DNA of 64,000 nt, taken from contig JASPKZ010001233.1 of NCBI GenBank assembly GCA_030220185.1, positions 558,001-622,000 on the forward strand, given 5' to 3'. Made by a program: the position numbers and the translations under genes. Shown here piece after piece: positions 4,436-63,352 of the stretch; positions within the stretch are counted from its first letter, which is position 1; every line of letters begins with the position of its first letter. This DNA is from Diploptera punctata. Taxonomy: Eukaryota; Arthropoda; Insecta; Blattodea; Blaberidae. The notes beneath the pieces are model-generated. The model saw nothing but the letters and a program-made list of their open reading frames with translations. It ran no database searches and had not been told where the DNA came from.

Positions 4436-4664
4436 TGTGGGAAAATCAATTACTGAGGATCTATAAATATGAGTTTTTCCTCTAGTTCAAATGTGATTAG
4501 TACAAGGACTGTAGGAATTCATACTTTTAAAATTCAGGTACTCTAGGTACTCTATTTTTATATTATAATATTATGTAGGAATTCAATCATGAATCAGGGA
4601 AAATGATAAAACCGGGAACAATAAATAGAGTTTTTTTACTATATATATGTATAGGTCAGTAATT

Positions 4665-4882
4665 ATTATTTTTGGTCTGATCATCTTACCTCAATATTAA
4701 TGTTGATTTGTTCTTGAATATATTTCAAAACAGTTCTGTTTTATCGTCAGCTTGTCCAGACAATAAAACAGAATTTTTTTAAACATGTTCAAGAACAAAT
4801 CAAAATTAATATTGAGGCAAGATGATCAGACCAAAAATAATATAATTAAAATAACCTCAAAATATCACTTCCTAAAATTAAA
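4665..4882. mobile_element. PLE tail inverted dimer with duplicated target
   Basis: The arms TTTGGTCTGATCATCTTACC and its reverse complement enclose CTGACGATAAAACAG-type hammerhead-like cores. The unit is flanked by TATAGGTCAGTAATT at 4650-4664 and 4883-4897, a duplication of up to 15 bp that includes a few ambiguous bases. Confidence 0.75.
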
Positions 4883-5074
4883 TATAGGTCAGTAATTTCA
4901 TTCTACAGCTGTAATTTGTTTTTTTTTCCCCTCTCTTTTTTAATATTATGGTAATGCATAATTTTCGTAACTAGACCAAAAAAGAAAACCAAACCCAATG
5001 ATCAAATCTCAAGTCTAAGATTAATATCTAAGATAGGCAATGAACAAAACCTATTAAAAAAAAGTTGAATTTTG

Positions 5075-5250
5075 GAGAACTTCTATAATTTCAAAATATT
5101 ATATTTGAAGAGAAACATTTTCCCAACATTAATTAAATAGAAACATTTTCGCCTAGACTGAGACTCGAACCCGGGACATTTGGCTTCCTGGGCCAAATGC
5201 TCTACCAACTGAGCTACCGAGGCGAGTTGCAATCTAGATGCAAATTTTTC
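5075..5250 (-). mobile_element. tRNA-SINE (family A), minus copy
   Basis: Reverse-strand tRNA-like head at 5152-5225: GCCTCGGTAGCTCAGTTGG with the B box GGTTCGAGTCTC and tail ending TCTCTTCAAATATAATATTT. It could fold as a cloverleaf, but tail, flanks and multiple copies mark it as a SINE. Confidence 0.78.
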
Positions 5251-5639
5251 TATGTTTGAGTTTGTGGGCAAAAAGTAAGGGATGATCACATAGTGATTAA
5301 ACTGTGGTCAAGGATGAATGCATTGGCAACTATTCTTAAATGCTGTCAGAAGTTCAAGATATATTAAATCCACTTTAGTAAGATTTCCATGATATTTTAA
5401 ATCACAAAGTTGATAGGAATTAACACTATGAGATATTTTATTAAAGAAATTGAATTTTTTTTTACACCTTATCTCATATTTTGCTCCGAAACCAGGGACT
5501 ACTTTCAAAGGTCATTCCTGACATTTCCAAGCCAAAATGACTAACAGTCATTTTTTAGCTTAGAATATGGATGATGATCTTCGAAAGTAGTCGTAGGTTA
5601 AATACCAAAATATTAGATGAGGTATAAAGAACTATTTTG

Positions 5640-5905
5640 ATATTAAATTTAGTATAACATCAAAATATTAAGCTTTACCGCTTAAAAGTAATGAAAAATT
5701 CTCGTTAAAAATACTCTGAATAGAAGTCGTCTGATAGCGTTGTTAATAGCATGTTTTCGGACATAAGAGAAATGTATAAGTGGAAAGAAAATTTAGCAGT
5801 TGTATCAGGTCTTGAATGGTTTAATGGATTACACGCTGATGTACACAGTAAGAGGTCCAGAGTTCATTTCCTGGTTCAAGCGTTAATTTTTCTGTCCAAA
5901 AAATA
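5640..5905 (+). mobile_element. tRNA-SINE (family C)
   Basis: Shares AAGCTTTACCGCTTAAAAGT near its start and the tail GCGTTAATTTTTCT with copies at 14950-15330, 25440-25720 and 27330-27613. A weak B-box relative (GAGTTCATTTCC) precedes the tail. Confidence 0.65.
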
Positions 5906-5946
5906 TAAAAAAACTAATTCAATTACTTTTTCATAATATTACTTAC

Positions 5947-6192
5947 AGCTTTTTCACTGCCAACTGTCTTCTTGGATGGCAAGTTAAGACCTATCTGTCC
6001 TGGTACCACAGTCTCCTCTCCTGTCACAAGAGCTTCATTTTCTTGTGCCTCACGTTCCTCTTCTGCCTCATCCTCGAGTACAAGTGGCTCAGCTGTCCTC
6101 TCAAACAACCTGAGAACTCGGTCAGATCCACAGCTCACCACATACTGACCATTAGGGCTCACTGCCAGGGAGTAAGCTTGTCCATGATGTGC
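5947..6192 (-). CDS. WDR3: WDR3 exon 11 (residues 661-742)
   Basis: Starts AHHGQAYSLAVSPNGQYVVS after TGTTAG, with the last WD40 blade (SDRVLRLFERTAEPLVLEDE). It then has the acidic EAEEEREAQENEALVTGEE helix that leads into the Utp12 domain, and ends SEKA before GTAAGT. 246 nt, phase 0. The apparent reading MSPNGQ beginning at 6162 is internal to the exon. Confidence 0.95.
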
Positions 6193-6354
6193 CTAACAGG
6201 TAATTTAAACAATACATAACCACATTATTGCTTTCTTTATTTTTATGACATGCACGTCTTTAATATAATACATAAATAAGAAAACACAAGAAAACAAAGT
6301 ATTAAACACCAGATGATGAAATAGAAGAAATCTATCTATCTACAATTGCATAAT

Positions 6355-60880: not shown

Positions 60881-61079
60881 TCTTGGCTACCCTTAGAAAA
60901 ATTGCAGTCCAATGACAGAGACAGAGCTTTGAATCTCTGATCTTTGAATCCTACAATAAGAGTGTTACTATTGAATTAGCCATAATTTACTAACTACTTT
61001 ACATTGTGATATAATTAAATATCACAAGAAATATTTTACTTTATAAGACAAATGTATTAAGAAAAATGAGAAATAAATA

Positions 61080-61345
61080 CAGGGCATGCAGTAGCATAAT
61101 TGGTTAAGTCATTGTACTACAAGCCATAAGGTTACAGGTTCGATCCCCAATGAGTCAGGAATTTTAAATTGACCTAAACCTTCTGGTGTTACTATAAACC
61201 TGAGGTTGATTCAGTCTCTAATTGAAATGAGTACAGTGCATATTCTATGGGTAAAGGCACTGTCACCTTATGCCAGTTGTCTAGAAAGATGAAGACTTAA
61301 CCTCCTATTATCCTAAGCCAGAGTGGGATCACTTTACTTTAAACA
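61080..61345 (+). mobile_element. tRNA-SINE (family G)
   Basis: GCAGTAGCATAATTGGTTAA, B box GGTTCGATCCCCA, end AGAGTGGGATCACTTTACTT. Same family as 4195-4435. Confidence 0.75.
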
Positions 61346-61549
61346 CATACACCCACAACATAAGCACGCATTAATTGATATTTAATGGCCGAAACATGTT
61401 AAATTGCAACATAATCCGTTGTAATAAGTAAGGTTGTTGAGATTTTATAGTAAAATGTGTAACTTATACATTATGTGCTGTAAGGTCTATGCTTATATAA
61501 TTTTATTGTAAAAATGGCAGGATCTTTAATAAACTCTATAGTGCAATAT

Positions 61550-61880
61550 GCATAGAAGGCCTCTGGCCTACCATCTAGCTGCTGGCCTCACATCTACATG
61601 TCCCAATCATTGATATGGACGATCGTCAGTATAGGGTTCGTAAATTAATGAGTCATTTTTTACATCTTACCTCATAATTTATGTTTCTTTAAACACGGGA
61701 ACTAGTTTTCAAGAGAAACATCTCTCTCATTTTCAACCGACATTAATAGTATAGGGTTAACATGTGATTGCATGTTGGGTCCCTAAGTTGTTATATATAT
61801 ATGGTTTTCTCAACCTCGATCCACAACTAAATCTAGCTACCCATATGGTGGGAGACTCCAGTCTCGTACTGGCTTAAATT
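61550..61880 (-). mobile_element. tRNA-SINE (family H) split by a PLE tail
   Basis: GAAGGCCTCTGGCCTACCATC at left; the family H body resumes at 61750 after a PLE tail piece (about 61640-61745: TTTTACATCTTACCTCATAA ... GTTTTCAAGAGAAACATCTC). The shared flank AGTATAGGGTT at 61627 and 61747 is consistent with a duplication of about 11 bp. Confidence 0.68.
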
Positions 61881-62028
61881 TCGGCTCTTTTGAACTGTTA
61901 GTTTAATGGAACATTAATAAAGAAAAACTAAATAGATTAAATTGGCAATATACACCTCATCTCAAAATTTAAAATATAGAATGAGGTAAAATCAAATGTT
62001 TCCTACATCTCCTCATATAAATCTTCTA

Positions 62029-62073
62029 AGTAGATCGCGATTTCGAGACCATAATGGTCTCATCTTCAGTACT
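62029..62073 (-). ncRNA. Minimal hammerhead ribozyme, fully paired
   Basis: Reverse strand: stem I AGUA/UACU, core CUGAAGA, extra U, stem II GAGACC/GGUCUC (6 bp, loop AUUAU), GAA, stem III AUC/GAU with a two-base loop, cleavage position C. All core positions are conserved. This is one of the two best copies in the window. Confidence 0.82.
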
Positions 62074-63066
62074 ATTTTGGCAACTGATGTTATGTCGATC
62101 GGAAAAAACTCTTCTTCTTCCCTCTGTTGATGGACCGATGAACCTCTGGATCAGGTCAGAATTTACAGGAATTTTGAAGTTGATAAGTTTTCCTTTGTTT
62201 TTCTGAATGTGGATTTTTTCCCAAACCTTGAGTTCCTTTTGTTTATCTATTTGTTTAATTAGACTGGCTTTTGATTCAATTAAATGTTTTTCGGACCAAG
62301 CATGAGCAGCTACTGCTGACTTTTCCACTTCTGCGTTTTTTGACATTTTTAAGATGTTCTTTCACCCTTGTTTTCAAATTTCTTTTTGTTTTTCCAATAT
62401 AAATTTTGTCACAATACCTGCATTTGATCTGATAAATTCCTGATTTGTTTTCTTCTTCAATTCTTTCATTTTTATTGGTTTTAATTATCCTATTAAGGCT
62501 GTATTTGTTCTTCGGTGCCAATCTTATATTAAACTTTTTGAATTTTTTTTTTAATTTATGGTGTTTCAATGGATTCAATCCATAAATTTAAAAAACAATT
62601 CAAAAAGTTTAATATGAGATTGGCACCGAAGAACGAATACAGCCTTAATAGGATAATTAAAACTAATAAAAATGAAAGAATTTAAGAAGAAAACAAATCA
62701 GGAATTTATCAGATCAAATGCAAGGATTGTGACAAAATTTATATTGAAAAAACAAAAAGAAATTTGAAAACAAGGGTGAAAGAACATCTTAGAAACGTCA
62801 AAAATGGAGAAATGGAAAAGTCAGCAGTAGCTGCTCATGCTTGGTCCGAAAAACATTTAATTGAATCAAAAGCCAGTCTAATTAAACAAATAGATAAACA
62901 AAAGGAACTCACAGTTTGGGAAAAAATCCACATTCAGAAAAACAAAGGAAAACTTATGAACTTCGAAATTCCCACAAATTCTGACCTGATCCAGAGGTTC
63001 ATTGGTCCACCGAGAGAGGGAAGAAGAAGAGTTTCTTCCGATCGACATATCATCAGTCGCCAAAAT

Positions 63067-63111
63067 AGTACTGAAGATGAGACCGTTATGGTCTTGAAAT
63101 CGCGATCTACT
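63067..63111 (+). ncRNA. Minimal hammerhead ribozyme overlapping the PLE ORF end
   Basis: Stem I AGUA/UACU, CUGAAGA, extra U, stem II GAGACC/GGUCUU (one G-U pair, loop GUUAU), GAA, AUC-GC-GAU, C at the cleavage site. It codes for the last residues of the PLE endonuclease (STEDETVMVLKSRST), and the stop codon begins at its 3' border. Confidence 0.82.
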
Positions 63112-63352
63112 TAGAAAATTTGTATGAGGAGAGGTAAGAAACATTTGATTTTACCATAAATTAAACCTCATAGTGATTAATTCCTATAAAAGTTTTAAAA
63201 AATGGCTTGAGGTGTTTATCTTCAATCTCTTATTAGATTACCTGATAATGTTACTTATCTTTTTTTAAGGACATTTCTTTATATAATAGTTCTTCAAATG
63301 TTTTATTTATCTTCTGTATCATTAAACAAAATAATTATTTTGTTTATAATAG

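What the first reader, a model, noticed from the sequence alone, without database searches (positions are those of the whole stretch)
4650..63195. PLEs and tRNA-SINEs share one insertion signature: inverted dimers with 3' ends outward and target duplications of about 12-14 bp
Seen: PLE dimers at 4665 (up to 15-bp TSD), 19506 (14), 22663 (12), 27614 (13) and 50519 (13), and SINE units at 10606, 20178, 21834 and 38223 (all exactly 12). In both classes the left arm is minus, the right arm plus, and the 3' tails face outward. Known: PLE insertions are often complex and inverted, and SINEs borrow the retrotransposition machinery of a partner element, usually a LINE. Inference: here the partner is PLE, with reverse transcription primed from both sides of the staggered cut and the two cDNAs joined in the middle. 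The window's LINE also has 13-14 bp duplications but no inverted arm, so the dimer topology, rather than duplication length, is the linking feature.
Basis: partly seen in the sequence, partly recalled or inferred. Interest (0 to 1): 0.86.

Follow-up and report, generated by a model that had tools for sequence, protein, structure and literature searches.

The report
tRNA-SINEs inserted by Penelope-type machinery
In this animal genome an abundant tRNA-bearing short element inserts as mirror-image pairs with the same two kinds of fixed end points as Penelope-like retrotransposons have, which suggests that it borrows Penelope rather than LINE machinery.

Summary
The listed dimers and target duplications are real. 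The missed key is an asymmetry: one arm ends at a fixed long site (L), the other at a fixed short site (S) about 38-54 nt upstream (one SINE family: 80). In the window this holds for 14 of 14 curated PLE and 10 of 10 curated SINE dimers. In the 3.12-Gb genome it holds for 19 of 20 resolved PLE dimers (one short end is 30 nt off) and 21 of 24 two-armed SINE-A blocks, the other 3 unclear. Of 59 SINE-A clusters listed, 24 have both strands, and all 24 diverge; a similarly abundant classical tRNA-SINE showed none in 100 places. An Anolis PLE starts reverse transcription at two adjacent internal sites and cuts and extends both strands; its authors call the resulting tail unique to PLEs (PMC11167929). 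So these SINEs most likely use PLE-type machinery. Not shown: a shared recognition sequence (tests essentially negative) or which PLE is the partner.

The parts
4665..4882 (.). PLE inverted dimer, short arm left, long arm right; TSD 4650-4664 / 4883-4897 (TATAGGTCAGTAATT)
831..1025 (.). PLE inverted dimer, long left / short right; TSD 13 of 15
8288..8439 (.). PLE two-armed insertion, long left / short right; TSD AATATTTTTT (10 bp, low complexity)
11281..11599 (.). PLE inverted dimer, short left / long right; TSD 9 bp exact
19506..21673 (.). PLE inverted dimer with coding arms, short left / long right; TSD 14 bp exact
21200..21310 (.). 111-bp PLE dimer nested in the previous one; TSD AACATAATATAA (12 bp); empty site visible in the opposite arm
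22663..22947 (.). PLE inverted dimer, long left / short right; T-rich TSD
24325..24865 (.). PLE insertion whose long arm is only about 23 nt of tail, short arm right; TSD TATTACTGTTAC (12 bp)
27614..28648 (.). PLE inverted dimer with GIY-YIG coding arms, long left / short right; TSD AATAGTAATGATT (13 bp)
29221..29625 (.). PLE inverted dimer, long left / short right; TSD ATTTATATAT (10 bp, low complexity)
30071..30209 (.). PLE inverted dimer, long left / short right; TSD ATTTAAAATCAA (12 bp)
47689..47892 (.). PLE inverted dimer, long left / short right; TSD about 12 bp exact
50519..50678 (.). PLE inverted dimer, short left / long right; TSD AGTAAGTGATTTT (13 bp)
54786..55624 (.). PLE inverted dimer, short left / long right; TSD 12 bp with one mismatch
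1906..2127 (.). SINE-A inverted dimer, long left / short right; TSD TTATATACG(T/A)TT
2252..2612 (.). SINE-B inverted dimer, long left / short right; TSD 11 of 12
10606..10922 (.). SINE-A: left arm is long tail only, right arm full-length with leader, tRNA and short end; TSD ATTAAGAGATTT (12 bp); inserted in a PLE tail
12218..12495 (.). SINE-B inverted dimer, long left / short right; TSD 12 of 13
12975..13134 (.). SINE-A inverted dimer, long left / short right; weak TSD (8 of 9)
13304..13449 (.). SINE-E inverted dimer, short left / long right; TSD AG(G/A)TGAGTTTGTA
14958..15338 (.). SINE-E, long left, tandem + arm, short right; TSD AGATGAGTTTGT
20178..20362 (.). SINE-D inverted dimer, short left / long right (tail about 80 nt); TSD AAGAGTACTTCT (12 bp)
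21834..22395 (.). SINE-C, long left arm, right arm a head-to-tail tandem ending at the short site; TSD TGGTATTTATGA (12 bp)
38223..38280 (.). 58-bp SINE-C insertion made only of the two tails back to back; TSD AGTACCAACTAA (12 bp)
18353..18611 (+). single-oriented SINE, leader to short end; TSD weak (9 of 10)
26178..26696 (+). PLE GIY-YIG endonuclease coding segment used as genome query

Best explanation
The tRNA-SINEs of this genome (at least five families, A-E, in the window, related by eye) are inserted by Penelope-type machinery. Proposed steps. (1) A PLE protein, probably a dimer, binds the SINE RNA. (2) It cuts the target on both strands, leaving 3' overhangs of about 12 nt. (3) Each overhang primes reverse transcription at an internal RNA site, one strand at the short site S and the other at the long site L about 45 nt further 3'. 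(4) The two cDNAs run to variable 5' stops or through tandem units and are joined. The product is a head-to-head inverted pair with 3' ends outward, one S end and one L end, between duplications of mostly 12-13 bp. Shown by sequence: end fixity, S+L pairing in the resolved dimers, orientation, duplications, variable inner truncation, and the same anatomy in PLEs. Inferred: that a PLE protein does it, that one dimer on one RNA uses each site once, and the overhang polarity.
For: Window: 14 of 14 curated PLE and 10 of 10 curated two-armed SINE insertions have one long and one short arm. Genome SINE-A, 40 regions taken in list order: 24 two-armed blocks; 21 have a duplication (score >=9.5; swap null 11 of 552); 21 are clearly S+L, 20 of these with the duplication; 3 are unclear (L029, L032, L043); none is clearly L+L or S+S. 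Four further dimers interrupted by other DNA are also S+L, three with score >=9.5. Genome PLE: 20 dimers at different places resolved, 19 with canonical S and L, one (L070) with the short end 30 nt off; duplication in 19 of 20. Long beyond short end: PLE 38-50 nt (12 usable of 14), SINE 42-54 nt (7 of 9 given to the call; SINE-D 80; 38223 has no overlap). Orientation: 24 of 24 mixed-strand SINE-A clusters are minus then plus among the 100 places listed of 76,569 (counted by hand), against none in 100 listed places of a classical tRNA-SINE with 69,009 matches. A 58-bp insertion holds just the two tails. Published: an Anolis PLE cuts and extends both strands, starts at two adjacent internal RNA sites spanning the genomic tail, and is modelled as a dimer (PMC11167929, parts 1, 2 and 4 of 4 read). 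An A. vaga PLE mobilised a host gene in trans, and its tail sits on one of the inverted pLTRs (PMC3846280, passages). PLEs with long open frames are present.
Against: No shared recognition sequence or structure was found between SINE and PLE start regions: gapped p 0.19-0.94; SINE-D ungapped 0.04-0.07; one nominal p 0.02-0.03 of three families; SINE stems p 0.07-0.49. No particular PLE family is identified as partner. SINE-D has an 80-nt tail. Some SINE-A insertions are single-oriented (5 with a duplication in 40 regions). L043 (ends 302/291, no duplication) could be L+L. One of ten control-SINE loci (L104) has an older minus copy followed 35 nt later by a plus fragment. The Anolis study saw no difference in start site between the two target strands, so it does not itself show strict S+L pairing. 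Only SINE-A was surveyed genome-wide, from places with no mismatch to the pattern, which favours young copies; families B-E rest on the window. Window PLE candidates were partly found by their tail motif, and PLE loci came from a query that favours inverted copies. Borders were curated by eye.
Confidence: 0.78

Rival explanations
1. A LINE mobilises the SINEs and the dimers are twin-priming products.
For: LINEs are the usual SINE partners (recalled). LINE sequences are present. LINE twin priming gives inversions (recalled).
Against: Twin priming inverts the 5' part and does not copy the same 3' region twice with both 3' ends outward (recalled). Here S is a fixed site in dozens of insertions and both arms cover the same sequence. 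The window LINE and a classical tRNA-SINE show no such pairs in the places examined, apart from the old L104 pair. The SINE-A tail matches no LINE in the window.
Confidence: 0.07
2. The tRNA elements are themselves non-autonomous PLE derivatives (comparable to hammerhead retrozymes) that picked up a tRNA, rather than SINEs that borrow machinery. This is compatible with PLE-type insertion and concerns descent.
For: Tandem 304-bp units with the tRNA in the middle rather than at the 5' end, insertion anatomy like that of PLEs, and a literature suggestion that PLEs mobilise retrozymes (PMC7229834, passages).
Against: No match between the SINE-A unit and two PLE copies above words of 10-12 nt. The tRNA fold scores up to 56 bits.
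Confidence: 0.25
3. The second arm is made by self-priming (snap-back) of one cDNA or antisense RNA, as was proposed for the inverted repeats of A. vaga PLEs (PMC3846280, passages), not by a second target-primed start.
For: Palindromes at the inner junction; some SINE-A junctions fall in self-complementary stretches (arms overlap by up to about 40 nt).
Against: Both outer ends are fixed, differ from each other and abut the duplication; a snap-back copy should not stop regularly at S. In vitro both target strands are extended (PMC11167929).
Confidence: 0.08
4. The dimers are replicated as ready-made palindromic units (foldback or MITE-like DNA elements).
For: Palindromes are abundant.
Against: Inner truncation and loop length differ between copies of one family. 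The 58-bp two-tail insertion keeps no interior. Ends are not inverted copies of each other.
Confidence: 0.05
5. Palindromes are sequencing or assembly artefacts.
For: Inverted chimeras are a known artefact class (recalled).
Against: Arms of some dimers differ by 10-25%. Target duplications exist on many contigs. A nested insertion has a visible empty site. The control SINE shows no such pairs in the 100 places listed.
Confidence: 0.02

Closest known systems
Penelope-like elements (Poseidon of Anolis carolinensis, PMC11167929; Penelope of Adineta vaga, PMC3846280)
   Same: Inverted copies, target duplications, tandem units, and a tail of about 30-40 bp at one of two ends that corresponds to two adjacent internal reverse-transcription starts; both strands cut and extended.
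   Different: Known cases are autonomous elements or pLTR-framed cargo. Here a tRNA-SINE shows the signature without detectable PLE sequence, and S+L pairing holds in nearly all dimers that I could resolve. Duplications are mostly 12-15 bp against 8-10 bp in the A. vaga passages.
Metazoan hammerhead retrozymes (PMC7229834)
   Same: Small, non-autonomous, tandem units; PLEs named there as a strong candidate for mobilising them.
   Different: These carry a tRNA. No Rfam hammerhead match in the window, and a strict descriptor found none. The words 'SINE' and 'inverted' do not occur in that paper's main text.
Classical tRNA-SINEs with LINE partners
   Same: tRNA-derived part with an intact cloverleaf, tens of thousands of matches.
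   Different: tRNA sits about 160 nt into a 304-nt unit, the 3' end is no simple repeat, and insertions are inverted with two starts.

Membership tests
Penelope-like element (for the coding PLEs here) | Single ORF with reverse transcriptase and C-terminal GIY-YIG endonuclease | tested here: met
   GIY-YIG by Pfam on the L093 ORF at residues 695-777; many homologues carry PF00078 and several also PF01541. Pfam did not call RT in this ORF itself; a YVDD motif is visible.
Penelope-like element (for the coding PLEs here) | Tail: two alternative 3' ends, one on each inverted arm | tested here: met
   14 of 14 curated in the window; 19 of 20 resolved in the genome, one off by 30 nt
Penelope-like element (for the coding PLEs here) | Hammerhead ribozyme in the pLTR | tested here: inconclusive
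   No Rfam hit at gathering score in the window, none at E<=10 in one dimer, strict descriptor none; a degenerate core-like string was seen by eye only
PLE-type insertion (for the SINEs) | Two fixed internal start sites about 30-50 nt apart | tested here: met
   SINE-D at 80 nt is an exception
PLE-type insertion (for the SINEs) | Both strands primed, 3' ends outward | tested here: met
   24 of 24 mixed clusters; 21 of 24 two-armed blocks with a duplication
PLE-type insertion (for the SINEs) | Recognition sequence shared with a PLE | tested here: not met
   against PLE families of the window and a few genome copies only; a partner PLE elsewhere is not excluded
PLE-type insertion (for the SINEs) | PLE protein acts on SINE RNA | not testable with these tools
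   needs biochemistry
tRNA-SINE | Short, non-coding, with tRNA-derived promoter region | tested here: met
   Rfam tRNA 35-56 bits in SINE-A and -C units; 304-nt unit
tRNA-SINE | tRNA part at the 5' end of the element | tested here: not met
   tRNA core at about position 175 of the 304-nt unit, preceded by a leader
LINE-dependent SINE | 3' end shared with a LINE, single-oriented insertions | tested here: not met
   only the window's LINEs were compared

The most novel reading that the evidence does not exclude
A whole clan of tRNA-SINEs is PLE-dependent, and the one-S-one-L rule means that a PLE ribonucleoprotein is a two-headed machine. Two reverse-transcriptase subunits sit about 43 nt apart on one RNA; each cuts one strand and each fires once. 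Partner choice would be read by this spacing and by shape rather than by a copied 3' sequence.
Probability: 0.4. Interest if true: 0.88.

Novelty: new variant of a known kind. Interest (0 to 1): 0.78.

Why it matters
SINEs are thought to depend on LINEs (and a few on LTR elements; recalled). No paper describing a SINE driven by a PLE appeared in the listings (open-licence library, top rows only). If true, it adds another class of SINE partner and would explain much of the load of palindromes in a 3-Gb genome. It also gives a very large set of natural insertions as a record of the PLE reaction: which site each strand uses, how far each cDNA runs and how the two are joined. The S+L rule makes the open question of PLE two-strand synthesis directly testable in vitro.

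Tried and rejected
Shared tail motif: by eye, PLE ACCTCATARTGTTA and SINE CC.TCA..RTGTTA looked alike; the test against shuffles and genomic windows was negative, apart from an ungapped p of 0.04-0.07 for SINE-D, and I dropped it. Shared motif after L: one 11-of-12 match, p 0.02-0.03 in one of three families, not counted. A stem around S: good in PLEs (TATGAGGT/ACCTCATA, with TTGAGGT/ACCTCAA and TATGAAGT/ACTTCATA variants; 8-bp pairing better than shuffled upstream sequence at p<=0.01 in 9 of 12), but the wider search gave p 0.03-0.07 for three PLEs and nothing significant in SINEs. Hammerhead core: not confirmed. Idea that the L-primed arm is always the shorter: contradicted by several loci (by eye). 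Arms from one RNA: arm-to-arm identity exceeds the mean between loci in 16 of 17 dimers, but exceeds every other pair in only 4 of 17, so suggestive only. Viral-contig scans: 0 hits, and 14 stretches with a 17-mer that I did not follow. Left out of the window counts: P3, P12, P16, P17, P27, S6, S15-S19, S21, the foldbacks at 10935, 14130 and 53527, and other tRNA units seen. By eye P16 (61985-63155) is S+L without a duplication, 10935-11149 is probably long/short with its tail split off by a SINE, and P17 (38477) lacks a clean tail. Genome PLE loci left out: L063 and L073 (the window itself), L066, L068, L071, L076, L083 (neighbours of counted loci), L081, L086, L089 (not resolved; L086 looks like a second assembled version of L087). 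SINE-A: L052 not resolved; fragments without a duplication not counted. Of 59 SINE-A clusters I fetched the first 40.

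
Full report
What is there. The window lies in a 3.12-Gb assembly of 10,165 contigs without a name. It holds an exon of a WDR3-like gene, LINE and piggyBac pieces, PLE coding pieces with GIY-YIG domains and a striking density of foldbacks: 48 inverted-repeat pairs of 35 nt or more within 1.5 kb.

The missed feature. When the outer ends of each dimer are written in RNA sense, every resolved insertion has two different fixed 3' ends. 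In PLEs the short arm stops a few nucleotides before a conserved tail (ACCTCATARTGTTATTTCC...), and the other arm carries the tail to its end. In SINE-A the short arm stops at CTCTTCAAATATG and the long arm adds ATTTATCCATCATTGA...AACATTG; SINE-B, -C, -D and -E have their own pairs. All 14 curated PLE and all 10 curated two-armed SINE insertions are one long plus one short, with the long arm on the left in some and on the right in others. If the two ends were chosen independently and evenly, 24 of 24 mixed pairs would be expected about once in 17 million; this overstates the case somewhat, since PLE candidates were partly found by their tail motif and unresolved ones were left out. The long arm exceeds the short one by 38-50 nt (median 41.5) in 12 usable PLE dimers and by 42-54 nt (median 46) in 7 usable SINE dimers, with SINE-D at 80.

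Inner structure. Arms are cut at variable inner points. The smallest SINE insertion, 38223-38280, is 58 bp and consists of one long tail and one short tail back to back between two copies of AGTACCAACTAA. At 21200-21310 a 111-bp PLE dimer sits inside another PLE; the opposite arm of the host palindrome still shows the empty site with one copy of the 12-bp target (by eye). SINE arms can be tandem: at 21834-22395 the right arm is two head-to-tail units, the inner one with the long tail and the outer one ending short.

Genome test, SINE. The SINE-A core, with up to two mismatches, matched 38,333 plus and 38,236 minus sites; the reversed control pattern matched 1 and 0. These are units, so insertions are fewer. 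The 100 places listed, all without mismatch, form 59 clusters. In the 24 clusters with both strands the order is always minus then plus (counted by hand from the list). I fetched the first 40 clusters in list order. The repeat unit is 304 nt with S at 259 and L at about 304. Of 24 two-armed blocks 21 have a duplication by a score that swapped flanks reach in 11 of 552 trials. 21 blocks are clearly S+L, 20 of them with the duplication; three are unclear (L029 at 263/290; L032 and L043 without a duplication, L043 possibly L+L); none is clearly L+L or S+S. Four dimers interrupted by other DNA are S+L too, three of them with a score of at least 9.5; a fifth, L052, is not resolved. Five single-oriented insertions have a duplication, three with S and two with L ends.

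Genome test, PLE. The 30 loci fetched for the window's GIY-YIG query (of 159 matches) gave 20 resolved dimers at different places. Nineteen have S and L ends near the usual positions, one (L070) has its short end 30 nt early. Nineteen have a duplication of score 9.5 or more (not L090). After correction for overlap with the duplication, S falls at 496-499 of my 541-nt reference in 14 of 20 and at 487-503 in five more; L is at 541 in 18 and at 537 and 538 in two (uncorrected). This query favours inverted copies, so nothing follows about how common dimers are among PLEs.

Control. A classical tRNA-SINE of the same genome, with 34,637 and 34,372 matches, gave two neighbouring pairs within 1.5 kb in its first 100 places, one plus-plus and one plus-minus, and no minus-plus. 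In ten fetched loci the matched copy is single-oriented, with its tRNA-like part in front and one of two other 3' ends; I did not compare these with a LINE. One of the ten loci, L104, holds in addition an older minus copy followed 35 nt later by a plus fragment, which tells against a perfectly clean control. The window LINE and five other repeat queries showed no minus-plus neighbours in the loci held.

Mechanism. An Anolis PLE protein, purified, cuts and extends both target strands and starts reverse transcription at two adjacent internal sites; [quoted passage not shown] the protein is modelled as a dimer; no difference in start site between the two strands was seen (PMC11167929; I read parts 1, 2 and 4 of 4). 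In Adineta vaga the tail is found on one of the inverted pLTRs, duplications of 8-10 bp are given, a host gene was moved in trans, and the authors favoured self-priming as the source of the inverted repeats (PMC3846280; passages only). The SINEs here show the two-start signature. The simplest account is that a PLE ribonucleoprotein inserts them, and that the two start sites of one complex are used once each, one per strand. That last step is inference. It is favoured by the S+L pairing and weakly by arms of one insertion resembling each other more than the average pair (16 of 17).

What failed. I could not establish a recognition sequence or fold shared by SINEs and PLEs. The PLE families seen in the window share one tail type, and the SINE tails do not have it. 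Either the partner is another PLE, or recognition is by shape and spacing, or it lies in the RNA beyond L. The tRNA also sits in the middle of the unit, with a run of T between it and S in most copies, which should end Pol III transcription (recalled), so how a template reaching S and L is made is open.

Novelty. Inverted PLE dimers and the one-sided tail are known. PLE-driven mobility of small elements was suggested for hammerhead retrozymes (PMC7229834, passages). A tRNA-SINE with the PLE signature did not turn up in my paper searches (listings only, apart from the papers named). I rate it a new variant of a known kind.

Noticed in passing
24361-28662: A tandem duplication of about 1.9 kb (24361-26771 against 26258-28662, 98.8% identical), perhaps from unequal exchange between two neighbouring PLE copies, or an assembly duplication.
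   Followed up: partly
21834-22395 and L055: The 304-nt SINE unit has its tRNA near the middle, and the leader just before the tRNA is nearly the reverse complement of the stretch after it, so the unit itself may be a fossil inverted dimer; the RNA is predicted to fold into a long hairpin around the tRNA.
   Followed up: partly
window SINE units, e.g. 10900-10912: A run of four or five T follows the tRNA before S in most SINE arms shown, which would be expected to stop Pol III before the start sites (recalled).
   Followed up: no
window PLE long arms: A stem of 6-8 bp (TATGAGGT with ACCTCATA, with matching changes in some families) brackets the S site with a loop of about 26-37 nt.
   Followed up: partly
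L055 (G000:C33:129000-133400): An inverted array of eight SINE-A tRNA cores, three minus and five plus, with S on one end and L on the other and one 12-bp duplication: a long tandem arm on each side.
   Followed up: yes
10585-10934: A SINE-A inserted into the tail of what looks like a PLE dimer, separating the tail from the arm (by eye).
   Followed up: partly
57214-58653: piggyBac-like transposase (DDE_Tnp_1_7 on 57856-58653).
   Followed up: no
60204-60950: Long open frame without a Pfam hit that reads like the end of a LINE reverse transcriptase; from recall it resembles proteins annotated in Periplaneta americana, untested.
   Followed up: no
G000 PLE loci: PLE copies with open frames of 744-882 aa and endonucleases 97-98% identical to the query suggest recent activity.
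   Followed up: no
46498-46937 and 56114-56517: Two further inverted pairs (78-79% identical) that belong to neither PLE nor the SINEs described.
   Followed up: no
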